Assembly (NCBI GenBank): GCA_001839685.1
Contig: MLAK01000629.1
Span: forward strand, 77,657-90,301
Source of the DNA: Tritrichomonas foetus
Taxonomy: Eukaryota > Parabasalia > Tritrichomonadida > Tritrichomonadidae
Direction: 5' to 3'
Length of the DNA stretch: 12,645 nucleotides
Shown: positions 1 through 11,956 of the stretch, in pieces
How the letters are laid out: each line of letters begins with the position of its first letter
Numbering within the stretch: position 1 is the stretch's first letter
Program-made: the position numbers and the translations under genes
The notes under the pieces: model-generated
Database searches by the model: none
What the model saw: only the letters and a program-made list of their open reading frames with translations
What the model was told of the DNA's origin: nothing

Positions 1-568
1 ATGGTATCAAAGGTGAAACGATTAAAAATTGTGGTAATTTAAATTTAGGAGGACAAGAATTTGATTCACGTTTAAGTTCAATTTATTATGATCCACTTGA
101 TGAGAATGAATTAACACCAGAAGAAATTGAGAAAGAGAAACAACGTCGATTGAGAGATAGTGAGAATGCGAAGATTGAATTAAGTTGTAATAACAAAACA
201 TTTTTAAATAATAAACCAATTACACGTTCACAATATGAAGAAGAATGTCAAGATTTAATTTCTAAATCGATTCAACCAGTTAAAGATTTATTTAAGAATG
301 ATAATTCAACAAATAATCCGACATCAAAATATATTTCTAAACAATCTATTGATAAAGTTATTTTGAATGGAGGTATGAGTCAAACACCAAAAATCATTGA
401 TGAAATTCGACGTTTCTTTGGTGATGATGTTGAAATTGTTAATAGTCAAGAAGATGATCTTATTAGTCGTGGCTGTGCAATTCAAGGTGCTATTACTAAT
501 GGCAGTGAAGATCCCAGTATCAAAGACCTTCATATCATAGACAAATATCCACATAAACTATCAATTGA
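1..568 (+). repeat. Identical intragenic tract, copy 1 (unit A), clipped by window edge
   Basis: Every base from 1 to 568 equals 1597-2164 (offset 1596 bp). Bases 1-421 also equal 4882-5302. The identity ends abruptly after the codons for LSI and the first two bases of an Asp codon. The tract encodes the second half of the ATPase domain up to the start of the substrate-binding domain. The left end is unknown because the window starts inside it. Confidence 0.97.
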
Positions 569-962
569 CTTTTCTGGTGACGGAGATGATCCTATTGTTG
601 CAATTCCTAAAGGTTCAGAAATGCCTACAACTAAAGGTGAAAAGACAACAACTAATTCTGATAACCAAAAAGAAATGTTTGTAGATATTTTTGAGACCCC
701 TGGTGGAAACAGTAAAAATCAAAATTCGCCTGCTGGCCTTATCAAGATATATGATATTCCTCGAGATAAAAAGGGAATGAATGATATAGAAATTACTGTT
801 GGTGTGAATGATGAAGGAATGATAGAAGCTTCAGCAAAAGAAAATAATCGAAAGTTTATTTTACCAACCGAAATTATTAATCCTGATAGTTTAAATGATG
901 AGGATATTCTGAAACTTAAGGAGAAAGTTGAAGATGCTAAAAAGAATATAAATGCATTTAAA
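1..962 (+). other. HSP70 unit A (partial): second half of ATPase domain plus substrate-binding beta domain
   Basis: Residues 1-320. The window opens just after the phosphate-2 loop, at a point equal to residue 533 of unit B. It covers subdomain II with the SENAKIELS segment, the NGGMSQTPK adenosine-binding segment and the GCAIQGA segment, then the linker around residues 176-186 and a beta substrate-binding domain (about 186-300) with the TTTNSDNQ signature. A short charged helix (about 297-318) leads directly into unit B, so there is no lid. The first 568 bases are identical to part of unit B. Confidence 0.85.
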
Positions 963-3900
963 TCATCAGTTGGAATTGACTTTGGTTCAGGAACTTGTAA
1001 GTATAGTGTTTATTCACCCAATGATGCAATGGAATTAATTTCAATTCCATCAATAGTGGGAATTAAAGGTGGAAACCAAAAACTAGTTGGTAACATTCCA
1101 CCTTCTGTTCAAGAATTAAAGCGTGTAAAAATTGTTGATGATATGAAAAGAGTTTTGGGTCATTCATTTAATGAAGTAAGCTTTGAAAAAATGTTAAAGA
1201 ATTTTTCTTTCTCTATACAAGAAGAAGAAAATACAAGACGTCCAATTATAAAGCAAAATAATACGAGCATTCCATTTGAAAAAATTACTGAAATGTTATT
1301 AGCTCATGTAAAAATGTCAATTACCAAAGAAACTAATGAGAATATTGATGATGCTATAATAGCTGTACCTTCGTTATTTACAGATTCACAGAGAAGAGCC
1401 ATGAAAGATTCAGCGTATATAGCTGGATTTACAAATGTTCGAATTATTAGTGAACCAGTGGCTACAGTCTTAACAATAAACAAAAATGCAAATGCCATTG
1501 AAACTAACAAATTAAATAATGAGGAAATAGAACAAAAAAATTATGTTATCTTTGATATGGGAGCAGGAAAGGTTGAAGCAACAATCATTCAAACAAATGG
1601 TATCAAAGGTGAAACGATTAAAAATTGTGGTAATTTAAATTTAGGAGGACAAGAATTTGATTCACGTTTAAGTTCAATTTATTATGATCCACTTGATGAG
1701 AATGAATTAACACCAGAAGAAATTGAGAAAGAGAAACAACGTCGATTGAGAGATAGTGAGAATGCGAAGATTGAATTAAGTTGTAATAACAAAACATTTT
1801 TAAATAATAAACCAATTACACGTTCACAATATGAAGAAGAATGTCAAGATTTAATTTCTAAATCGATTCAACCAGTTAAAGATTTATTTAAGAATGATAA
1901 TTCAACAAATAATCCGACATCAAAATATATTTCTAAACAATCTATTGATAAAGTTATTTTGAATGGAGGTATGAGTCAAACACCAAAAATCATTGATGAA
2001 ATTCGACGTTTCTTTGGTGATGATGTTGAAATTGTTAATAGTCAAGAAGATGATCTTATTAGTCGTGGCTGTGCAATTCAAGGTGCTATTACTAATGGCA
2101 GTGAAGATCCCAGTATCAAAGACCTTCATATCATAGACAAATATCCACATAAACTATCAATTGATGAAAACAAGAGAGCCAAACTTCCATCGACTATCAT
2201 TCCTAAAGGATCATATTTACCATATTCTAAACAATCAAGAACATCAACAGACTCAGATAATCAAAATCAAATGGGAATCGAATTATTTGAAACTCCGGGA
2301 GGAAATAATGAAAATGAAAAATTGATTCAAATGATTCAAATTGATAATATTCCTAAAGATAAGAAAGGTGCTCCAAAGATTGATTTTACTGTTGCTGTTA
2401 ATGACGAAGGAATCCTAGAAGCGAAGGCAAAAGAATTAAATCGAGGATTCATACTTCCAGCCAAAATTATTGCTCCTAACAATATCAAAGAAAAACAAGA
2501 TATAGATCAATATGCAGAAGAAATTAAATCAATGAATAATATCGATTTAAATGATATTTCTGAAGAAGAAGAAGAGAAAAAGGAGGAGATAATACCAATG
2601 AAAGAAGAAGAAGAAATTTACGAAATGAGTGAAAGTGAAAGTTTTGATGAACCAAAGATGGATATTGATGATAGCAAACTCTCTGTTGGAATTGATTTTG
2701 GTTCTAAAGCCTGTAAATATTGTGTATATCCATTTATACTTGATTCTAAAAATGTTCCAAAAACAATTCAATCAGCTATATGCTTTAAAGGTGATCACAG
2801 AATCGCTGGTAATATAACTGAAAATATTATTGACTCAAGTGAAATTAAAGTAATTAGTGAATTCAAGCGAATTTTGGGACATACTTTCGCTGAGAAAGAA
2901 TTCAAAAATAAACTTCGAATTATTCCATTTCAAGTTCTGGAAAACAATGAAAATCATCGCCCTTATGTTCAACATAATAACAGAAATGTTCCATTCGAAC
3001 AAATGACAGGAGAGTTATTTTCAAAAATTAAAGATGATGCTAGCAAAGAAGCTGGTGAAAAAATTGAAAGTGTTGTTGTTTCAGTTCCAACTATGTTTAA
3101 AGATTCACAAAGGAAAGCAGTTAAAAATGCTGCAACAATTGCTGGATTCAAATACATCAGATTGATTAATGAGCCAACAGCATATTCAATTGCATTTAAT
3201 AAATATGATCTTGAAAAAGATAGCACACTCATTAAAACCACAAATAAAAATAACAATGGTGAAACAAAAGCAAACATAGTTTTCTATGATATTGGTAGTG
3301 GAAAAGTTGAAGCAGCAATAGTATCAACAACAAATGGAACAATCAGTGAAATACGAAAAAATAGTGGTAATTTGAACTTTGGTGGAAGAGAATTTGACAT
3401 GAGGTTAGTTTCAAAGTATTTTGAACATATTCCAAAGAAACATAATATGAACCAAGAAGAACTGGAAAAAACCTTACATGAAAGGTTATCAATCTGTGAA
3501 AAAGCTAGAATTGATTTATCTTCAGATGAAAAAACTCGGTTGAATGGTAAAACATTTACTAGAAATCAATTCGAAGCTGTTTGCTCCGATTTATTAGAGT
3601 ATTCAATAAAGCCTCTCAAACAATTGTTCATTGATGGAGAAATTTCGAAAAACGATATTAGTCTTGTCATTGTTAGTGGTGGTGTTAGCCAAACACCAAA
3701 AATTCAAGAAGAAATAAAACTATTTTTTGGAGATGATATGAAAATCATTTCAAAAGTGCATGAACATAATATAAGTAAGGGCGCTGCAATTTATGGTGCC
3801 ATAACTAAAGGTATTGATGATACTAGGATTAAAAATTATCGCTCAATTAATCATTTGCATGAACCAATTGGAATTAAACACAAAAATGGTATAAATTCTA

Positions 3901-6900
3901 TTGTCTTTAAACCAACAGCTGTATTACCATTTAGTAGAAACACATTGGCTACAACAAGTGAAGATAATCAATCAAATATCTGCTTTGATATTGTTCAAGG
4001 AAATAGAAAAATGGCTGATGACTGTATCACTATTGGTGTAGTTAAAGTTGAAAATATCAAGCCAGCAAAAAGATGTGAGCCAAAAGTAGAAGTTTGTATG
4101 ACTGTAGATGATGATGGAATATTTAGTGTGAAAGCTAAAAATAAACTAACTGGGAAAATTATGCCTGCAAATCTGGTATCTGATGCAAATATGGAAAAAT
4201 TAGATGTTGATGAACACCAAATTGAACTTGATGATTATAAATTGTATAATGACTATGTAAAACCATCTGTTGGTATAGATTTAGGATCAAGTAAATGTCG
4301 ATATGCTGTATTTAGGAAAGATGAACTTTTGAAGAATTTCCCTGCAGTTGTTGCGTTTAAGGGTGAAAGACTTAATATTGGAAATGTCCCAACAAATGTA
4401 AGAAATTCCAAAGAAACAAAAATAATTGATGACATGAAGAGAGTTGTTGGCCATTCATTTAAAGATAGTGAGTTTGCAGAAAGATCAAAAGAATTTACCT
4501 TTAAAATTTCCCAAGAAGATGACACTCAAAGGCCAATTTTTATTAATAATGAAAATGGAATACCATTTGAGCAATTAACAGGAATGATGTTTTCAAAGGT
4601 TAAAGAGGATGTCAGTCGTGAGGCAAATGAAAATGTTGAAGATGTTGTTATTGCAGTTCCATCAATATTTTCGGATGCACAAAGAAGATCAATTAGAGAT
4701 TCAGCATTAATTGCTGGATTCAAACATGTAAGACTCATTAATGAACCTTCTGCCTCAATTCTTGCGATTAATAAAAATGAAAATGATATTAATCCAAATG
4801 AGGAAAAGAAACACAAGAAGAAAAATTATGTTATCTTTGATATGGGAGCAGGAAAGGTTGAAGCAACAATCATTCAAACAAATGGTATCAAAGGTGAAAC
4901 GATTAAAAATTGTGGTAATTTAAATTTAGGAGGACAAGAATTTGATTCACGTTTAAGTTCAATTTATTATGATCCACTTGATGAGAATGAATTAACACCA
5001 GAAGAAATTGAGAAAGAGAAACAACGTCGATTGAGAGATAGTGAGAATGCGAAGATTGAATTAAGTTGTAATAACAAAACATTTTTAAATAATAAACCAA
5101 TTACACGTTCACAATATGAAGAAGAATGTCAAGATTTAATTTCTAAATCGATTCAACCAGTTAAAGATTTATTTAAGAATGATAATTCAACAAATAATCC
5201 GACATCAAAATATATTTCTAAACAATCTATTGATAAAGTTATTTTGAATGGAGGTATGAGTCAAACACCAAAAATCATTGATGAAATTCGACGTTTCTTT
5301 GGAAATAATGTAGAGATTGCCACAATAGACAGTAATGATCCAATAATTAGTAGAGGTGCAGCAATTCAGAGAGCCATTGAAAATGGCTGTTATGACCCAG
5401 AAATCAGGAATTTACAATATAATGAAAAATATCCACATGCACTTTCTGTTGATGATGTAAAGAATGGAAAACCAGATTTTCTTGTGATCGCGAGGGATTC
5501 ACCAATTCCAGTTCAAAATAATACTGATACTACAACAAGCGAAGACAATCAAAAAGATCTTAATCTTGATGTTTTGGAAGATAGTGATAAATTAGAAAAT
5601 AATGATATTAATCCTATTGGATATGTGGAAATTAAAGAAATACCTGATGCAAAGAAAGGTGAAGCTGATATTGATGTTACAATGGGCATTAATAGAGATG
5701 GTCTTATTGAAGCTTCATCAATCGAGCAAAGTAATGATGTTGATATGCCAACCAAATTTGTGAATAATAGTTGTTTAGACGAAAATGATGTTGATAAGTT
5801 GAAACAAGAACTTGAAGAAATAATGAATAGAGAAAGACTAAATAGTGTTGTTGGTATCGATATTGGAACATGTTCATGTAGATATTCCTTTTATTCACAT
5901 GAAAAAAGGAAAGCATCAATGTTTCAATCTGTTATTGCATTTAAAGCAGGAGAGAAATTTGTTGGAGCTGTTCCTCCTAACATTTTGCAAGCTGACAAAG
6001 CAATTATTGCAACTGACATGAAAAGAATTATTGGTAGAGATTTTAATGATGCTAATCTTGTGAAATTATCAAGTCAACTAACTTATAAAATAGATAAAGA
6101 TATAAATAATAATAGACCGTTTGTCAGAATAGATAAAGAGAAATATTCTTATGAAGAATTAACATCAATGTTACTATCGAAAATTAAAAAGAATATTGTT
6201 CGTGAAATGGATAAAGAAGTATATGATATTGTAATTTCTGTTCCAGGTTTCTTTCCAAATGCACAACGCCAAGCAATTCGAGATGCAGCAAGAATATCTG
6301 GTTTTAATGTCCTTAGAATGGTAAATGAAACTGCTGCTACTGCAATGACATATAATACAAAAGAAGAACTACGAGATAAAAATAAGAAAAATGTCGTTGT
6401 ATTTGATATGGGAGGAGGTAAAGTTGATACATCATTAATCGTATTAGAAGATGGAGTTTGTACAACTATAAATAGTGCTGGTGATATGAACTTAGGAGGA
6501 AGAGATTTAGATTATAGACTTACATCACACTATCTTACTAAAGGTAAAAAATTACCCTTTAACGAACTAATAAAAGATATGTCTGATTCTGAAAGAGCAA
6601 AGATTGAATTATCACTTCGAAATTCCACAACATTGAATGGAACTGAAATAACAAGACAAGAATTTGAAGAGACATGTAATGATCTTCTAGAAAAGACTAT
6701 TGATCCACTTAAGGAATTATTTGTTGGAGCACCAATAACAAAACATGAAGTTCAGCAAGTTATTTTAACCGGAGGTTGTACTAAAATACCAAAAGTTCGA
6801 GAACTTGTTGAAAAATTCTTTGGTCGAGATGTTCAATACATCTACGCAGATGATTTACATTCTGTTGTAAATGGAGCTGCAATGCAAGGTGCTGCAATGA

Positions 6901-7592
6901 GATGCAAGAATTTAGAAGAATTAAATGGTGTGGAGGTAAAGAATACACTCTTGTTATCAGTTGGCATTAGTCAAGCAAATGGAATTAATTCTATTATTAT
7001 TCCTCATGGAACAATTTTACCTGCTGAATTTAAAGTATGTGCAACAACAAGCTATGATGGACAAAATGATGTTTCTTTCGATATTATTCAAGGAGAGCGT
7101 AAAATGGCAGCAGACTGTATTTTCCTTGGACATGTAACAGTAGATGGAATCGGGGTTGCTTTACGCTGTGTACCAAAAATTGAAGTGACAATGAAAATTG
7201 ATGAAGATGGACTCATGTCAGTAAAGGCTAAGGATCTAAAAACTGGAGCATCAATGACTACTTCACTTTATTCATCATCAAACTTGAATGAAAGTGACAT
7301 TCAGAGAATGTATGATGAAGCTGAATTACTCAAAACAGAGGATGAAAAGAAGATGAAAATTGCTGAAGAATTAGGAGAACTTCATTACGGCTTAGATAAA
7401 GCTGAACATCTTCTTCGAGAACAAAAACTACCTCGAGATATGAAGAAACAAGCTAGAAATATGATTACCGAAATGAAATCATGGATTAAAACAAATGATG
7501 AATCTGATCCTGAAGAATTTATTAAGCAAAGAAATACTTTGTCTAATTTACTAAGCACCATAGCACCATCAGGAGAAGAAGATAATGTGTAA
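1..7592 (+). CDS. Poly-HSP70: tandem HSP70-like multi-unit protein, 5' end missing
   Basis: The frame is open from position 3 to a TAA at 7590-7592, followed by a second in-frame TAA, giving 2529 visible residues (residue n starts at base 3n). The true start lies outside the window. Five HSP70-like units follow each other: A (residues 1-320, partial), B (321-893), C (894-1421), D (1422-1947) and E (1948-2529). Each complete unit shows the phosphate-1 motif (GID-x-G), the MKR/FKR-xxG lysine segment, an xVPxxF...QR box, the NEP-like box with its glutamate, phosphate-2 (D-x-G-x-G-K), a GGxxxxPK adenosine segment, then a beta substrate-binding domain with TTSxDxQ and DxDGxxxVKA-like signatures. 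Ordinary HSP70 has one such unit of about 640 residues; here units are 526-582 residues and only E has the alpha lid. Chaperone ancestry is clear. ATP-driven folding activity is uncertain because every visible phosphate-2 loop has Lys for Thr. Neither a KDEL-like nor an EEVD terminus is present, so cytosol is the default guess. Confidence 0.93.
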   Translation, partial: GIKGETIKNCGNLNLGGQEFDSRLSSIYYDPLDENELTPEEIEKEKQRRLRDSENAKIELSCNNKTFLNNKPITRSQYEEECQDLISKSIQPVKDLFKNDNSTNNPTSKYISKQSIDKVILNGGMSQTPKIIDEIRRFFGDDVEIVNSQEDDLISRGCAIQGAITNGSEDPSIKDLHIIDKYPHKLSIDFSGDGDDPIVAIPKGSEMPTTKGEKTTTNSDNQKEMFVDIFETPGGNSKNQNSPAGLIKIYDIPRDKKGMNDIEITVGVNDEGMIEASAKENNRKFILPTEIINPDSLNDEDILKLKEKVEDAKKNINAFKSSVGIDFGSGTCKYSVYSPNDAMELISIPSIVGIKGGNQKLVGNIPPSVQELKRVKIVDDMKRVLGHSFNEVSFEKMLKNFSFSIQEEENTRRPIIKQNNTSIPFEKITEMLLAHVKMSITKETNENIDDAIIAVPSLFTDSQRRAMKDSAYIAGFTNVRIISEPVATVLTINKNANAIETNKLNNEEIEQKNYVIFDMGAGKVEATIIQTNGIKGETIKNCGNLNLGGQEFDSRLSSIYYDPLDENELTPEEIEKEKQRRLRDSENAKIELSCNNKTFLNNKPITRSQYEEECQDLISKSIQPVKDLFKNDNSTNNPTSKYISKQSIDKVILNGGMSQTPKIIDEIRRFFGDDVEIVNSQEDDLISRGCAIQGAITNGSEDPSIKDLHIIDKYPHKLSIDENKRAKLPSTIIPKGSYLPYSKQSRTSTDSDNQNQMGIELFETPGGNNENEKLIQMIQIDNIPKDKKGAPKIDFTVAVNDEGILEAKAKELNRGFILPAKIIAPNNIKEKQDIDQYAEEIKSMNNIDLNDISEEEEEKKEEIIPMKEEEEIYEMSESESFDEPKMDIDDSKLSVGIDFGSKACKYCVYPFILDSKNVPKTIQSAICFKGDHRIAGNITENIIDSSEIKVISEFKRILGHTFAEKEFKNKLRIIPFQVLENNENHRPYVQHNNRNVPFEQMTGELFSKIKDDASKEAGEKIESVVVSVPTMFKDSQRKAVKNAATIAGFKYIRLINEPTAYSIAFNKYDLEKDSTLIKTTNKNNNGETKANIVFYDIGSGKVEAAIVSTTNGTISEIRKNSGNLNFGGREFDMRLVSKYFEHIPKKHNMNQEELEKTLHERLSICEKARIDLSSDEKTRLNGKTFTRNQFEAVCSDLLEYSIKPLKQLFIDGEISKNDISLVIVSGGVSQTPKIQEEIKLFFGDDMKIISKVHEHNISKGAAIYGAITKGIDDTRIKNYRSINHLHEPIGIKHKNGINSIVFKPTAVLPFSRNTLATTSEDNQSNICFDIVQGNRKMADDCITIGVVKVENIKPAKRCEPKVEVCMTVDDDGIFSVKAKNKLTGKIMPANLVSDANMEKLDVDEHQIELDDYKLYNDYVKPSVGIDLGSSKCRYAVFRKDELLKNFPAVVAFKGERLNIGNVPTNVRNSKETKIIDDMKRVVGHSFKDSEFAERSKEFTFKISQEDDTQRPIFINNENGIPFEQLTGMMFSKVKEDVSREANENVEDVVIAVPSIFSDAQRRSIRDSALIAGFKHVRLINEPSASILAINKNENDINPNEEKKHKKKNYVIFDMGAGKVEATIIQTNGIKGETIKNCGNLNLGGQEFDSRLSSIYYDPLDENELTPEEIEKEKQRRLRDSENAKIELSCNNKTFLNNKPITRSQYEEECQDLISKSIQPVKDLFKNDNSTNNPTSKYISKQSIDKVILNGGMSQTPKIIDEIRRFFGNNVEIATIDSNDPIISRGAAIQRAIENGCYDPEIRNLQYNEKYPHALSVDDVKNGKPDFLVIARDSPIPVQNNTDTTTSEDNQKDLNLDVLEDSDKLENNDINPIGYVEIKEIPDAKKGEADIDVTMGINRDGLIEASSIEQSNDVDMPTKFVNNSCLDENDVDKLKQELEEIMNRERLNSVVGIDIGTCSCRYSFYSHEKRKASMFQSVIAFKAGEKFVGAVPPNILQADKAIIATDMKRIIGRDFNDANLVKLSSQLTYKIDKDINNNRPFVRIDKEKYSYEELTSMLLSKIKKNIVREMDKEVYDIVISVPGFFPNAQRQAIRDAARISGFNVLRMVNETAATAMTYNTKEELRDKNKKNVVVFDMGGGKVDTSLIVLEDGVCTTINSAGDMNLGGRDLDYRLTSHYLTKGKKLPFNELIKDMSDSERAKIELSLRNSTTLNGTEITRQEFEETCNDLLEKTIDPLKELFVGAPITKHEVQQVILTGGCTKIPKVRELVEKFFGRDVQYIYADDLHSVVNGAAMQGAAMRCKNLEELNGVEVKNTLLLSVGISQANGINSIIIPHGTILPAEFKVCATTSYDGQNDVSFDIIQGERKMAADCIFLGHVTVDGIGVALRCVPKIEVTMKIDEDGLMSVKAKDLKTGASMTTSLYSSSNLNESDIQRMYDEAELLKTEDEKKMKIAEELGELHYGLDKAEHLLREQKLPRDMKKQARNMITEMKSWIKTNDESDPEEFIKQRNTLSNLLSTIAPSGEEDNV
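963..2681 (+). other. HSP70 unit B: complete ATPase and substrate-binding beta domains, acidic tail linker
   Basis: Residues 321-893. Phosphate-1 is GIDFGSG (Hsc70 Thr13 position is Ser). K382 matches the catalytic Lys71 and E484 matches Glu175. Phosphate-2 is FDMGAGKVE, with D518 kept, Lys523 at the Thr204 position and Glu525 at the Asp206 position. The substrate-binding beta domain runs from about 718 to 832 (STDSDNQ, VNDEGILEAKA). About 60 linker residues follow, including E854-E858 and several more Glu runs, before unit C. Functional matches are by alignment to remembered HSP70 family motifs. Confidence 0.85.
1536..2164 (+). repeat. Identical intragenic tract, copy 2 (unit B)
   Basis: Bases 1536-2017 equal 4821-5302 in unit D (482 bp, offset 3285), and 1597-2164 equal 1-568 in unit A. 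The two identities have different right ends (2017 and 2164), so copy 2 carries the union. Read line by line, I found no mismatch, synonymous sites included. Confidence 0.97.
2682..4265 (+). other. HSP70 unit C: complete ATPase and substrate-binding beta domains, divergent from A/B/D
   Basis: Residues 894-1421. Phosphate-1 is GIDFGSK. K955 and E1057 match Lys71 and Glu175. Phosphate-2 is YDIGSGKVE with D1096 kept and Lys1101 replacing Thr. Its phosphate-2 to adenosine region does not belong to the identical tract found in A, B and D. The substrate-binding beta domain (about 1287-1397) has TTSEDNQ, an RKMADDC segment and an RCEPK segment that resemble unit E rather than units A, B and D. About 24 linker residues follow and there is no lid. 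Confidence 0.85.
4266..5843 (+). other. HSP70 unit D: complete ATPase and substrate-binding beta domains with an inserted identical tract
   Basis: Residues 1422-1947. Phosphate-1 is GIDLGSS. K1479 and E1581 are the Lys71 and Glu175 equivalents. Phosphate-2 is FDMGAGKVE with D1613 and Lys1618. From base 4821 to 5302 the DNA is identical to unit B, and identity stops abruptly inside the motif after RRFFG. The linker (NLQYNEKYPHALSV) lacks the DLLLLD pattern of canonical HSP70. The substrate-binding beta domain is about 1814-1925, followed by a charged helical linker of about 22 residues. Confidence 0.85.
4821..5302 (+). repeat. Identical intragenic tract, copy 3 (unit D)
   Basis: These 482 bp equal 1536-2017. 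On the left the identity begins in the AAAAATTATG preceding phosphate-2. On the right it breaks after TTTCTTTGG, where unit D continues with AAATAATG and unit B with TGATGATG. Flanking unit D sequence is only a diverged homologue of unit B. Confidence 0.97.
5844..7589 (+). other. HSP70 unit E: C-terminal unit, the only one with a helical lid
   Basis: Residues 1948-2529. This is the most HSP70-like unit: phosphate-1 is GIDIGTC with the Thr13 equivalent kept (T1956), K2007, E2109 in NETAAT, and a phosphate-2 loop FDMGGGKVD with all three glycines and both aspartates (D2135, D2142), but Lys2140 in place of Thr204. The substrate-binding beta domain is about 2316-2428. Residues about 2430-2525 are charged and helical, starting with the family-typical DIQRMYDEAE segment and containing EMKSWIK, matching the HSP70 alpha lid. 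The chain ends in GEEDNV, not EEVD. Confidence 0.88.
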
Positions 7593-7753: not shown

Positions 7754-10700
7754 TCAAAGTTCTTTATCTGAATTTGATGATTCATCTTGATCATCAAGTT
7801 TGGTTTCTTCTTTATCATCTTGTTGGTCTGACTGTGTATTATTAACTTTTTGATTGTTTGGCTTGATAACTACAACATAAACAACAATACCAACTACAGC
7901 ACCAACAACAACTAAGCATGCAATAACAATTCCTGCAATGGCTCCTGGGGCAAGTCCTTTCTTTTTCTGATCATCTCCTATTTCACTATCTGAATCATTA
8001 CCAGAAGTGATTTTACTATCATTATCCGAAGTGATAGTACTATCAGAGGTGATGTTACCATCATTACCAGAAGTGATAGTACTATCAGAGGTGATGTTAC
8101 CATCATTACCAGAAGTGATAGTACTATCAGAGGTGATTGTACCATCATTCGTGTGAGTAGTTTTACTAACATTTTCGGATTCAGATGATGAATCTGGAGT
8201 TGGATCAATAGTTGTTGGGTAACTTGGTGGAACAACAGTAACATCATCATCACTACTTGAATCGACTTTGTCTTGGTTCGTGATATAGATAGTTGTTTTC
8301 GAAATGGAACAAAGTGGTTTCAAACCGGCAGGAGCATTATTAAGGGCAATTTTGGATTGAATTTGGTCACAATTGCTGCTGCTCAACCCTGAAATAAACA
8401 GATATGCTTCGTCTTGTGTTGCTAAAAGTTTGGCTGGTGTTGCTTCAAATGAGACAGCAATAGAATCTGGATTGAAAGTTCCATTAACAATAGAAATGGT
8501 TGGCCATTCAGATTGACGTTTTATGGTGATTTTTGATCCCGTTGTAAGGGTACAATCATTGAGAGTCAATTGAGAATCAATCATTTCCAATTCTTTATTA
8601 ATTGTTAGTGATTTAAATGATGCTGTAACTGGAGACACTGAGACACTATCTGCTCCAATATTTTTTGTTGAAAGATGAGATGAAGATGTAATTGAAATTT
8701 TTGGATAAGTAATCTGTGTGTCTGCTTCAAGAGATGTACTATCACCAGTGCTAATAACTAAATCATTAACTGGTTGATCAATTCCTGACATCGTATATTT
8801 TCCAATATTGATAAGATAAAGACCAAGATCGACATTCTTCCATTCAGCTTTAAGAGTAAGATCTTTATAATTCGCAATATAAAGTTTTTGTCCATTTTTA
8901 GTGTTTGGTAATAATTTATCTTGTTGGCCATCATAATATGAATAGGAAGACAATTTAACTGGAATATCTTCTTTACCTTCTTCTGGTTGAACCATAACTG
9001 CGGTATATGTACCTGTTTCAACACGAACTTTATATTCTGGACATTTGCCTGATGTGGTGAAAAAGCGATGTTTTTCATCGTTAACAGTACCTGGTGTTAA
9101 AATACAATCACTGCCAATATTATGATCATCATAAAATGCAAATGAGCCTCTATCATCAAAGACTTTCTTCGCTTTTTCATCTCCATCAAGTTTCGGCATA
9201 TAATATCCTGTTTTATCAACTGTTTCTTTTTCTGCACAATCAATGATAGTTAATGGAAATCCAATCATTTTTCGTTGATAAATTGCTTTCATAGGGTATG
9301 GAAATGTGATGGATGCTTCAATTGTTCGTTTGTCTGTTTCACCTTCAATATAATTTGGTGAAACTTTGAGATGTTTAATCAATTTATCCATTCTATAATC
9401 ATATTTCAAAATCCATTGACGAGCACCTGGTTCAAGCAATAATTCATAGTTCATTGGACGATCTTTAACAACATTATCAATTGTAAAAGCATTATAATCA
9501 TTAGAAGCTGGTTGAATTAAACGAATTGTACGACGATTCATATTATATTTCATAATATCAGAATTATTAGCAATGATTGTATATGTATCTCTTAGTCGAC
9601 CACATTCTGTTCCTATTGTGATACAAAATTGATATAATTGTGTAACATATTGATAAACAAGAATACCATGTGTGGAATTACTTCGAATACCAAAAACATA
9701 ATCAGCAATATCATCAGAAAACTTTTGTTGATTAAATCCAATATATGAAAGTGGTCCTGTATAAACAGTACGTGTTAAATATTTACCTGATGTTGGTGTA
9801 TCTTTAATATCAATAGAAATAGATTTACTTTCTTGACTTGTTAAATATTGTCCAACTGTTAATTTTGGTTGATTATATAATTCGAGAATAATTGATGTTA
9901 AATTTGGATTTTCAATATCAACTTTTGTTTTATTACCAATAATAATTGTTCCAGAAATTGTAGAACCTTGAATAGAAACTTCAGGACTTTGATCTAAACG
10001 AAGTGTTTCTGTTAATGTAATTGGTTCTACAACTGAAATAATATAACGTGAATTTGTCTGACCTGTTGTTGATGTTGATGATGTTGAAGTAGGAATTTTA
10101 GAATATTCTTTAGGTCCAAGTTTATATTGTGATGTAGAACTACATTTATTAGAATCCGTTGAATAATAACAAATTTCAATATCAGTGCTTTCATCAAAAA
10201 TTGTAAATGAATATGTTAAATATTGTAATGGTGTTCTTTTTTGAATATATACTTTAACAGTAATAGTACTACCAACAACACAATATGATAATGCTTCTGT
10301 GGTCATTTGAATAATTAAACAATCAGATGTTCCTTTCGTTGAACGACTAATAAGATGTTTCTTTGTTGGAAGAGTTGTACCATCTTGACGTGTAATTTCT
10401 ATAATTAAATCTTCTGCTTGAATTGATGAATCTGAAAAAGCAGGATAATTAATAGACCAAACACTTGGAATGTGTGCGATTGGGAATGGACCAGCAGATG
10501 GCCATGAAATAAATTGAAGATCATTTTCATATTTAGATGGTGAAAGTGGAGCATTTGGTTCTTGAAATTTGACAACAGAAATTGGTGGAAGATAATTCGT
10601 TGAATTTACGTTTTCTGCTGGATAAAAGCCAACACCAATCTCTTTTAATGATGGATGAAGAAGCCAACGACGATGACCAACTTCTTCTGCATTATTACTT

Positions 10701-11956
10701 CCTTCATCACGAATAAATCCTGAAATCGATTCCCAACAACTTGATTCACCTTGTGCAAGATTACTATTTTTCGCTGTTTCACGTGTTTTATCATCTGTAC
10801 AATTATTAAAATCTTTTGGAACATCATGTGTAATTTGACCATATTGATGAAGTGATAATGCTGCATTTTGACATTCAGAATTCCATGAAATTTTATTGGC
10901 AATATTTGTTGATAATCCTGCAAATTGACGTAATAAATTTAAAACACGAACTGAATCTTTAATATCTTCAGGTGAATGTGTTCCAACTTTACATTTTCCT
11001 GAATCATGGCCAGTAACAATTTCATTAGGTGATGTTTTAGGAAAGTTTTGAAGATAAAGACTTTTCATTTCAGATATTTTACGTGCTTCAAGTTTAGAAT
11101 TTCGAATAGGTGAATATTCTGGTGTTTGTTTAGGTGGTGGTGGTGGTAAAGGTGTAACAACTGGAATAGGAATGTCTAATTTAACTGTTGAACTTTCTAG
11201 TTTCGAAATACGTGCAAAAATAGTTTTACCTAAATCAGAAACAGGAATATCTCGTGAAATCTTTAAACGATCTCCACCTCGTTTATATATAATAGATGAT
11301 GTTTCTGTAGAGCCCCATCGTTTACATTCATTTGGATAAATAGAACAATCAAGATAACCAAATGAAACTCGGTCATAATTATTAAAACTTTCATTAACAA
11401 CATTGGCATAATTTCCTAACCATTTCATATCTTCACGACATTCTCCATTATAAAAGAGAAAAACACTAAATTCGTTGGATTGATAAAATTGTTCTGTTGA
11501 TTTGTTAGTTAATGAAATCATTGGAAGATCAACTGGTGACATTTTCAAGTGTTCACGAAGAAGATCTTGATAATGTTGACTACTTTCTGTAATTGATATT
11601 GGTGTATACATCTTTGTTTCTTTAATGGTTTTACCATCTTTGGCGATAATATGTGAAGGTGTTGCAAGTGCTTTATCGTCAATAACTTTCTTACAAAAAT
11701 CCGCATTACCGAAGTTAATACAATCGATTTGAACAAAATGAACTTGTGGATAAGAAATGGAAACTTCTTCCCAATAAGGTTGTGAAGCTGGAGATGCGAT
11801 ACAACCAGCGAATGTTAATCTGAAAAAGATTGGTTCTCCGCTATCTAATAATTGCTGTGCTTCTTGATGATTCATAATTTCGATTGGTTTGTAAGGGGTG
11901 CATTTCTTTTCTTGGCTATTTGAAACAACCAAAGTCGCCAATAATCCAAAAATCAT
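7754..11956 (-). CDS. Type I surface protein: two redox-dead PDI/thioredoxin-like domains, CAP/SCP domain, repeat stalk, membrane anchor
   Basis: 1400 residues, complete. Order: short signal peptide (about 1-14); thioredoxin-like domain 1 (about 25-140) with only C52 at the CxxC position, the PDI-like DC...C pair C79/C88 and a candidate cis-proline P100; thioredoxin-like domain 2 (about 155-250) with C173 alone, the C204/C211 pair and no cis-proline; a proline run (270-275); a CAP/SCP domain (about 330-450) with H377, E409 and H428 in a VGHRRW segment as candidate site residues; a Ser/Thr linker (620-636); a beta-rich region (about 640-1230) with no family I recognise; a 14-residue repeat stalk (1270-1319); a transmembrane helix (about 1337-1364); and an acidic cytosolic tail of about 36 residues. 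At least a dozen N-x-S/T sites (such as N151, N188, N385, N451, N675) fit an exported ectodomain. CAP proteins elsewhere are secreted lipid-binding or immune-interacting proteins; the role here is unknown. The start is supported by the signal peptide and initiator words just upstream. Confidence 0.9.
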   Translation of the reverse strand: MIFGLLATLVVSNSQEKKCTPYKPIEIMNHQEAQQLLDSGEPIFFRLTFAGCIASPASQPYWEEVSISYPQVHFVQIDCINFGNADFCKKVIDDKALATPSHIIAKDGKTIKETKMYTPISITESSQHYQDLLREHLKMSPVDLPMISLTNKSTEQFYQSNEFSVFLFYNGECREDMKWLGNYANVVNESFNNYDRVSFGYLDCSIYPNECKRWGSTETSSIIYKRGGDRLKISRDIPVSDLGKTIFARISKLESSTVKLDIPIPVVTPLPPPPPKQTPEYSPIRNSKLEARKISEMKSLYLQNFPKTSPNEIVTGHDSGKCKVGTHSPEDIKDSVRVLNLLRQFAGLSTNIANKISWNSECQNAALSLHQYGQITHDVPKDFNNCTDDKTRETAKNSNLAQGESSCWESISGFIRDEGSNNAEEVGHRRWLLHPSLKEIGVGFYPAENVNSTNYLPPISVVKFQEPNAPLSPSKYENDLQFISWPSAGPFPIAHIPSVWSINYPAFSDSSIQAEDLIIEITRQDGTTLPTKKHLISRSTKGTSDCLIIQMTTEALSYCVVGSTITVKVYIQKRTPLQYLTYSFTIFDESTDIEICYYSTDSNKCSSTSQYKLGPKEYSKIPTSTSSTSTTGQTNSRYIISVVEPITLTETLRLDQSPEVSIQGSTISGTIIIGNKTKVDIENPNLTSIILELYNQPKLTVGQYLTSQESKSISIDIKDTPTSGKYLTRTVYTGPLSYIGFNQQKFSDDIADYVFGIRSNSTHGILVYQYVTQLYQFCITIGTECGRLRDTYTIIANNSDIMKYNMNRRTIRLIQPASNDYNAFTIDNVVKDRPMNYELLLEPGARQWILKYDYRMDKLIKHLKVSPNYIEGETDKRTIEASITFPYPMKAIYQRKMIGFPLTIIDCAEKETVDKTGYYMPKLDGDEKAKKVFDDRGSFAFYDDHNIGSDCILTPGTVNDEKHRFFTTSGKCPEYKVRVETGTYTAVMVQPEEGKEDIPVKLSSYSYYDGQQDKLLPNTKNGQKLYIANYKDLTLKAEWKNVDLGLYLINIGKYTMSGIDQPVNDLVISTGDSTSLEADTQITYPKISITSSSHLSTKNIGADSVSVSPVTASFKSLTINKELEMIDSQLTLNDCTLTTGSKITIKRQSEWPTISIVNGTFNPDSIAVSFEATPAKLLATQDEAYLFISGLSSSNCDQIQSKIALNNAPAGLKPLCSISKTTIYITNQDKVDSSSDDDVTVVPPSYPTTIDPTPDSSSESENVSKTTHTNDGTITSDSTITSGNDGNITSDSTITSGNDGNITSDSTITSDNDSKITSGNDSDSEIGDDQKKKGLAPGAIAGIVIACLVVVGAVVGIVVYVVVIKPNNQKVNNTQSDQQDDKEETKLDDQDESSNSDKEL
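8000..8149 (-). repeat. 42-bp tandem repeat encoding a Ser/Thr/Asn/Asp stalk
   Basis: Three 42-bp units (8108-8149, 8066-8107, 8024-8065) plus a partial one (8000-8023) encode NDG(T/N)ITSDSTITS(G/D). The units differ by only a few bases. They sit just outside the membrane helix, contain NIT glycosylation sequons, and probably form an extended, glycosylated stalk that may vary in length between strains. Confidence 0.9.

What the first reader, a model, noticed from the sequence alone, without database searches (positions are those of the whole stretch)
1..7592. A beads-on-a-string HSP70: at least five chaperone-like units in one polypeptide
Seen: one uninterrupted frame encodes five successive sets of HSP70 ATPase and substrate-binding motifs, more than 2500 residues, still open at the left edge. 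Known: HSP70 and Hsp110 proteins are normally single-unit. I know of no described poly-HSP70 of this kind. Inference: a covalent multimer could act as a multivalent holdase or scaffold.
Basis: partly seen in the sequence, partly recalled or inferred. Interest (0 to 1): 0.88.

Follow-up and report, generated by a model that had tools for sequence, protein, structure and literature searches.

The report
Chain of fused HSP70 chaperone units
A cattle parasite's genome carries one uninterrupted reading frame of 2,529 codons that encodes five HSP70 chaperone-like units in a row (the first cut by an assembly gap), where HSP70 normally comes as one unit per protein; the product is likely a cytoskeleton-linked chaperone chain or scaffold, but that role is untested.

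Summary
Confirmed, with limits. Window 3-7592 is one open frame of 2,529 codons with five HSP70 units. Units 2-5 have complete ATPase and beta substrate-binding domains; unit 1 is cut by a 2,508-N gap at the window's left edge. The genome is Tritrichomonas foetus, probably strain K, a short-read draft. Exact repeats of 421-568 nt inside the array leave copy number and some joins uncertain, but all four unit-unit junctions lie at least 398 nt outside them. Left of the gap, another unit follows a coiled-coil frame, with an in-frame TAG between.

The units belong to a trichomonad HSP70 family whose single-unit members carry a calponin-homology (CH) domain. A second T. foetus locus has three units; an unnamed source has CH, two extra ATPase domains and a full HSP70, apparently a separate expansion. 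Inner units keep core ATP-site residues but lack lid and hydrophobic linker; the last unit has a lid. Best reading: a covalent, multivalent, cytoskeleton-tethered holdase or scaffold. Role, expression and an intact start are untested.

The parts
3..7592 (+). Poly-HSP70 open frame, 2,529 codons plus TAA; 5' end lies beyond the assembly gap at the window's left edge
3..965 (+). Unit 1 (partial): C-terminal half of the ATPase domain plus beta substrate-binding domain
   Evidence: profile positions 215-518
966..2681 (+). Unit 2: complete ATPase domain, beta substrate-binding domain, long acidic linker; no lid
2682..4265 (+). Unit 3: complete ATPase and beta substrate-binding domains, no lid; predicted fold matches DnaK (TM 0.86)
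4266..5843 (+). Unit 4: complete ATPase and beta substrate-binding domains, no lid
5844..7592 (+). Unit 5 (terminal): complete HSP70 including the alpha-helical lid; closest to trichomonad CH-HSP70 proteins
1..568 (+). Repeat R, first copy in the window, 100% identical to 1597-2164 and to contig C239:74581-75148 left of the gap
1536..2164 (+). Repeat R in unit 2 (1597-2164 exact to copy 1; 1536-2017 exact to 4821-5302)
4821..5302 (+). Repeat R in unit 4 (482 nt exact to unit 2)

Best explanation
The frame encodes a chain of five HSP70-like units (the first cut by the gap) from a trichomonad CH-HSP70 family, which likely works as a multivalent, cytoskeleton-tethered holdase or scaffold. Shown: the open frame, the units, junctions outside the repeats, kept core ATP-site residues, loss of lid and hydrophobic linker in inner units, a full lid only on the last unit, and paralogues with an N-terminal CH domain. 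Inferred: the inner units bind ATP but are poorly coupled allosterically and act as beads that bind client segments or fix a conformation; the last unit is the one able to clamp a client; an N-terminal coiled coil (this locus) or CH domain (sister genes) holds the chain on a filament; recent copying between units (gene conversion) keeps part of the ATPase domain uniform.
For: Open frame and five HSP70 stretches. Junctions at nt 966, 2682, 4266 and 5844 lie 398-555 nt from the nearest exact repeat. Second locus C370 with a CH region plus three units, and P0123/P0124 with CH, two extra ATPase domains and a full HSP70 from an unnamed ENA source. Trees: terminal units of C239 and C370 are sisters (99 and 100, 100); inner units of both loci separate from the rest at 100, so the inner-plus-terminal layout is probably older than the split of the two genes. 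Motif blocks: D10, K71 and D199 equivalents kept in all array units where visible; lid only in unit 5; inner linkers lack the hydrophobic run. pN/pS 0.27/0.61, 0.35/0.62, 0.32/0.73. Unit 3 model pLDDT 86.4, pTM 0.88, best PDB match ATP-bound DnaK 4b9q TM 0.86. The upstream frame has strong heptad periodicity, 0 of 500 shuffles as high. CH and HSP70 share one frame at C206, C370 (761 aa), C537 and C723 (the C723 frame is read through an N run).
Against: No expression, protein or localisation evidence was available. The array's start is unresolved: a 2,508-N gap, and an in-frame TAG between the coiled-coil frame and the unit before the gap, with no in-frame ATG before that unit's first phosphate loop. 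The C370 array also changes frame once. No CH domain was found on this gene, so cytoskeletal tethering here rests on sister genes and a coiled coil that may not be joined to it. Threonine 204 is lysine in all array units where visible, so ATP hydrolysis may be weak or absent. Units 1, 2 and 4 also lack the QGxR loop of the substrate-binding domain. The tandem model of units 4-5 was poor (pLDDT 63.9, pTM 0.46) and says nothing on unit packing. Relatives with extra ATPase domains elsewhere have lost core ATP residues in them.
Confidence: 0.5

Rival explanations
1. Assembly artefact: separate single-unit HSP70 genes were joined through near-identical repeats by the short-read assembler.
For: Illumina plus 454 assembly with gap filling in a genome estimated at 62% repeats. 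Exact 421-568-nt repeats within the array; the left sub-contig ends exactly at the repeat's end and the right one starts exactly at its start.
Against: All four unit-unit junctions sit in sequence at least 398 nt outside the repeats, unit 3 with a junction on each side lies in one repeat-free stretch, and every join keeps frame. An independent locus (C370) and proteins from an unnamed source (P0123, P0124) have multi-unit frames.
Confidence: 0.1
2. The array is real DNA but a recently dead or partly dead gene; the open part is a remnant.
For: In-frame TAG upstream of the unit before the gap, and a frame change in the C370 array.
Against: 2,529 codons without an internal stop, conserved ATP-site residues, pN well below pS. 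Both breaks lie outside the window in a draft assembly.
Confidence: 0.15
3. A polyprotein that is cut into single HSP70 units, like polyubiquitin.
For: Head-to-tail units joined by linkers of very different length.
Against: No shared cleavage-like motif in the four linkers (by eye); the five units differ (28-78% identity, ten pairs) and inner and terminal units fall apart in the trees and are kept in both arrays; inner units lack a lid.
Confidence: 0.1
4. A purely structural HSP70-fold polymer with no chaperone cycle, for example a cytoskeletal ruler or cross-linker.
For: Lid and linker lost in inner units, T204 replaced by lysine; HSP70 chains are part of solved ciliary central-pair structures, PDB 7n6g and 7sqc; in P0123/P0124 the extra ATPase domains have lost the K71 equivalent in 4 of 4 and the D10 equivalent in 3 of 4.
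Against: D10, K71, D199 equivalents and much of the beta substrate-binding domain are kept in the T. foetus units; the last unit is complete.
Confidence: 0.25

Closest known systems
Trichomonad CH-HSP70 proteins (for example T. foetus 'Heat shock protein SSA3', P0004; C370 761-codon frame; P0002)
   Same: Unit 5 is 52% identical to the C370 single-unit member and 42% to SSA3, and 36-43% to the database hits P0002, P0003, P0004, P0005, P0006 and P0008; lysine in place of T204 is shared.
   Different: Those have one HSP70 unit behind a CH domain (P0003 shows no CH match); here there are five or more units and no CH domain was found.
Canonical HSP70/DnaK
   Same: PF00012, ATP-site core, predicted DnaK fold of an inner unit.
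   Different: Many units, no lid or hydrophobic linker in inner units, T204 to lysine.
P0123/P0124/P0125 HSP70s with extra ATPase domains (unnamed ENA source)
   Same: More than one HSP70 ATPase domain per protein, complete HSP70 at the C-terminus; P0123 and P0124 start with CH.
   Different: Extra domains lack a substrate-binding domain and the K71 equivalent (tested in P0123 and P0124), and cluster with their own terminal units (85), so probably a separate expansion.
Hsp110/Sse1
   Same: HSP70-fold relative with altered phosphate loops.
   Different: Units fall outside the Hsp110-like branch of the same genome; lower fold similarity of unit 3 (2qxl TM 0.76-0.77 against 0.86 for DnaK).

Membership tests
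HSP70 superfamily (PF00012) | Profile match above the curated cut-off over ATPase and substrate-binding domains | tested here: met
   1208 bits against 20.6, five stretches; units 2-5 matched over profile 1-520 or more of a profile built from the units
HSP70 superfamily (PF00012) | Core ATP-site residues D10, K71, D199 (bovine Hsc70 numbering, recalled) | tested here: met
   Kept in units 2-5 and in the unit before the gap; not visible in unit 1 (motif blocks; the numbered columns of that table beyond about 100 are one off and were not used)
Canonical, allosterically coupled HSP70/DnaK | Hydrophobic interdomain linker (VLLLD type, recalled) | tested here: not met
   Inner units carry polar or histidine-containing sequence there; unit 5 keeps a leucine run
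Canonical, allosterically coupled HSP70/DnaK | Alpha-helical lid after the beta substrate-binding domain | tested here: not met
   Absent in units 1-4, present in unit 5
Canonical, allosterically coupled HSP70/DnaK | T204 in phosphate loop 2 (recalled) | tested here: not met
   Lysine in all array units where visible and in the CH-HSP70 rows except C723
Hsp110 | Clusters with Hsp110-like proteins of the same genome | tested here: not met
   Two Hsp110-like loci (label mine, from recall) form a separate branch, support 100
Trichomonad CH-HSP70 family | HSP70 unit nests with CH-HSP70 proteins | tested here: met
   Unit 5 with C370 terminal unit (99), then single CH-HSP70 and P0002 (93); the repeat-region tree places the last two elsewhere (86)
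Trichomonad CH-HSP70 family | N-terminal CH domain | tested here: inconclusive
   None in the window frame or the upstream coiled-coil frame; the true N-terminus is behind a gap and an in-frame stop
Polyubiquitin-type cleaved concatemer | Near-identical units with a common cleavage site | tested here: not met
   28-78% identity between the five units, no common linker motif by eye
Chaperone function | ATPase and client binding | not testable with these tools
   needs purified protein

The most novel reading that the evidence does not exclude
Trichomonads have turned HSP70 into a modular repeat, at least twice independently: CH- or coiled-coil-anchored chains of ATP-gated HSP70 beads, with gene conversion keeping the ATPase core uniform and one lidded clamp at the end, forming a chaperone-based cytoskeletal cross-linker or ratchet of a kind not known elsewhere.
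Probability: 0.3. Interest if true: 0.85.

Novelty: new variant of a known kind. Interest (0 to 1): 0.62.

Why it matters
HSP70 is among the most conserved proteins known and is taken to work as a single unit whose two domains talk through a linker and lid. A natural chain of lidless, linker-altered HSP70 units with one complete unit at the end would be a ready-made test of what tethered multivalency does to a chaperone and of which HSP70 parts can be lost. If tied to the cytoskeleton, it may bear on the large, poorly understood filament structures of trichomonads.

Tried and rejected
Hsp110 identity: rejected by the tree. A spliceosomal intron removing the upstream TAG: none of the motifs ACTAAC, CACACAG or ACACAG occurs in C239:73300-74100, and one GTATGT does (73408), so no clear intron (the motifs are recalled from T. 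vaginalis). A stop read-through signal: the TAG is followed by CTAG, which recalls a known leaky context for UGA (recalled); noted as chance until tested. Search for other long poly-HSP70 proteins with the whole window protein: 1 hit among 7,977 scored candidates, the window itself; that search did not list P0123 or P0124, which lie within its length range and were found with a single clean unit (22 hits of 7,981 scored, the window protein included), so its silence proves little. Plasmid collection: no match, and not informative for a protist. Tandem fold of units 4-5: too poor to use. Sister relation of unit 3 and C370 unit B: 80 and 74 in two trees but not recovered in the ATPase-domain tree (where 69 goes against it), so left open. 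Literature on T. foetus genome, costa, cytoskeleton and CH with HSP70 in trichomonads: searches (15 of 33 listed; 8 of 13; 12 of 4,979; 1 of 1; 10 of 13; 10 of 22) show no title on this protein; ten papers were opened in all, nine at passages only and one, PMC5399258, as part 1 of 2 of its text. Only an open-licence library was searched.
Full report
What is there. The window is contig C239, bases 77657-90301, of a 63.7-Mb eukaryotic assembly. A protein on a contig of exactly the length of this genome's C370 (191,554 nt) is named TRFO_05911 of Tritrichomonas foetus, so the organism is T. foetus, probably strain K; the held assembly (1,064 contigs) is somewhat smaller than the published one (68.5 Mb, 1,573 scaffolds). 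The published draft used Illumina and 454 reads, AllPaths-LG and GapFiller, with a genome size estimate of 161 Mb and 62% repeats (part 1 of 2 of the paper text read).

Check of the observation. Frame 3-7592 runs 2,529 codons to a TAA. The longest open stretch in 200 Markov sequences was 207 aa. Pfam HSP70 matches in five stretches. A profile of the units gives U1 1-315 (second half of the ATPase domain onward), U2 322-881, U3 894-1418, U4 1422-1946, U5 1949-2520 in protein coordinates. The visible product would be 284 kDa.

The left edge. Window base 1 follows a run of 2,508 Ns (C239:75149-77656). Left of the gap, one more unit (ATPase domain) begins near 73935. It lies in the same frame as, and directly behind, a 597-residue frame starting at 71997, with a single TAG at 73788 between them and no in-frame ATG before the unit's first phosphate loop. 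The 597-residue frame has no Pfam match at E 0.001 but a strong 3.5-residue hydrophobic periodicity over its last 447 residues (0.772 against a shuffled mean of 0.203, 0 of 500 shuffles as high), that is, a likely coiled coil.

The repeats. Window 1-568 equals 1597-2164 and C239:74581-75148; 1-421 equals 4882-5302; 1536-2017 equals 4821-5302. Outside them, 50-nt bins aligned without gaps fall to 0.22-0.66 identity, against 0.29 for random pairs. The left sub-contig ends exactly at the repeat's last base and the right one starts at its first, so the assembler probably handled it as one collapsed node (inference). The copies must be nearly identical in the cell (recent gene conversion) or were made so by the assembler. 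Either way the junctions between units, at nt 966, 2682, 4266 and 5844, are 398, 518, 555 and 542 nt away from the nearest repeat copy, and unit 3 with both its junctions lies in one repeat-free stretch (2165-4820). If the repeat copies on both sides of the gap are one and the same, the gene has five complete units; if the gap estimate is right, about seven (inference). A search of the held assembly with the 568-nt repeat scored 6 matches: three full and exact, one at 91% over the full length (unit 4), and two partial ones at 71% (C370) and 69% (C239) (such counts are lower bounds).

Other arrays. C370 holds a single CH-HSP70 (761-codon frame, minus strand) and, divergent from it, a CH region plus three HSP70 units on two overlapping frames (20023-21957 and 21786-26624), with a frame change in an A-rich stretch; the CH region is 55% identical to that of the single-unit gene, although it missed the Pfam threshold. 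CH and HSP70 also share a frame at C206 (811 codons), C537 (1,239, Gly-rich spacer) and C723 (1,417, charged repeat spacer with an N run). In the protein database, limited to 887-2821 aa, 22 of 7,981 scored candidates matched, the window's own protein among them. P0123 (1,532 aa) and P0124 (1,502 aa), each with a longest contig of 7,575 nt (perhaps the same one), have CH, two ATPase domains without substrate-binding domain, and a full HSP70; P0125 (993 aa) has one such domain and a full HSP70. The remaining 18 matches were not examined beyond the listing, except that P0126 shows one HSP70 stretch.

Relationships. In a tree of 26 chosen rows with the repeat region left out, inner units U2, U3, U4 and C370B separate from the others at 100; U5 and C370C are sisters at 99; these join the single CH-HSP70 and P0002 at 93; canonical and Hsp110-like proteins of the same genome lie beyond a 99 branch. 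The repeat-region tree agrees on U5/C370C (100) and on the inner units (100) but moves the single CH-HSP70 and P0002 next to the inner units (86). In the ATPase-domain tree of 27 rows the extra domains of P0123, P0124 and P0125 join their own terminal units (85), not the T. foetus inner units, which suggests a separate expansion. U3/C370B as sisters has 80 and 74 in two trees and is not recovered in the third.

Anatomy and mechanism. D10, K71 and D199 equivalents are kept in every array unit where visible; T204 is lysine, as in the CH-HSP70 rows except C723; inner units have GAGK or GSGK, then V or I, then E where HSP70 has GGGTFD (motif blocks). Residue numbers and roles are recalled. Inner units lack the lid and the hydrophobic interdomain linker; U5 has both a lid and a leucine run. 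Units 1, 2 and 4 lack the QGxR loop that units 3 and 5 keep (by eye). An AlphaFold2 model of U3 (31 sequences) has pLDDT 86.4 and pTM 0.88 and matches ATP-bound DnaK 4b9q with TM 0.86; the model of units 4-5 together was poor. HSP70 in solved ciliary central-pair structures (7n6g, 7sqc) appears among the matches, a precedent for HSP70 as part of a cytoskeletal structure. I infer a tethered chain in which inner units hold client segments or act as spacers and the last unit can close on a client. pN below pS between paralogous units (0.27/0.61; 0.35/0.62; 0.32/0.73) argues for function, though pS is near saturation.

Novelty. The listings (open-licence library only; parts of the longer lists seen) show no title on a poly-HSP70 of this kind. 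The millet and sea-bass remarks (passages) are domain counts in gene-family surveys. I rate it a new variant of a known kind: HSP70 units in a new covalent architecture, with the assembly and expression caveats above.

Noticed in passing
window 7754-11956 (-): Convergent 1,400-codon frame with a weak CAP/SCP domain match (E 7e-5) and a 42-nt tandem repeat (3.5 copies, 8002-8149) coding a Ser/Thr/Asp-rich stretch before a likely membrane helix (by eye) near the C-terminus.
   Followed up: no
G000:C239:73788 (outside the window): In-frame TAG between a coiled-coil frame and an HSP70 unit, followed by CTAG, a context that recalls leaky stop codons; could be chance, an assembly error or a real stop.
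   Followed up: partly
L042 (G000:C537:109001-118000): One 1,239-codon frame joins a CH domain, a long Gly/Ser-rich repetitive spacer and a complete HSP70; C723 has a similar layout with a charged Lys/Glu-rich spacer.
   Followed up: partly
L034, G000:C370:16530-18815: Database entry TRFO_05911 (362 aa, 'hypothetical protein') covers only the C-terminal half of a 761-codon CH-HSP70 frame, so the annotation looks truncated.
   Followed up: no
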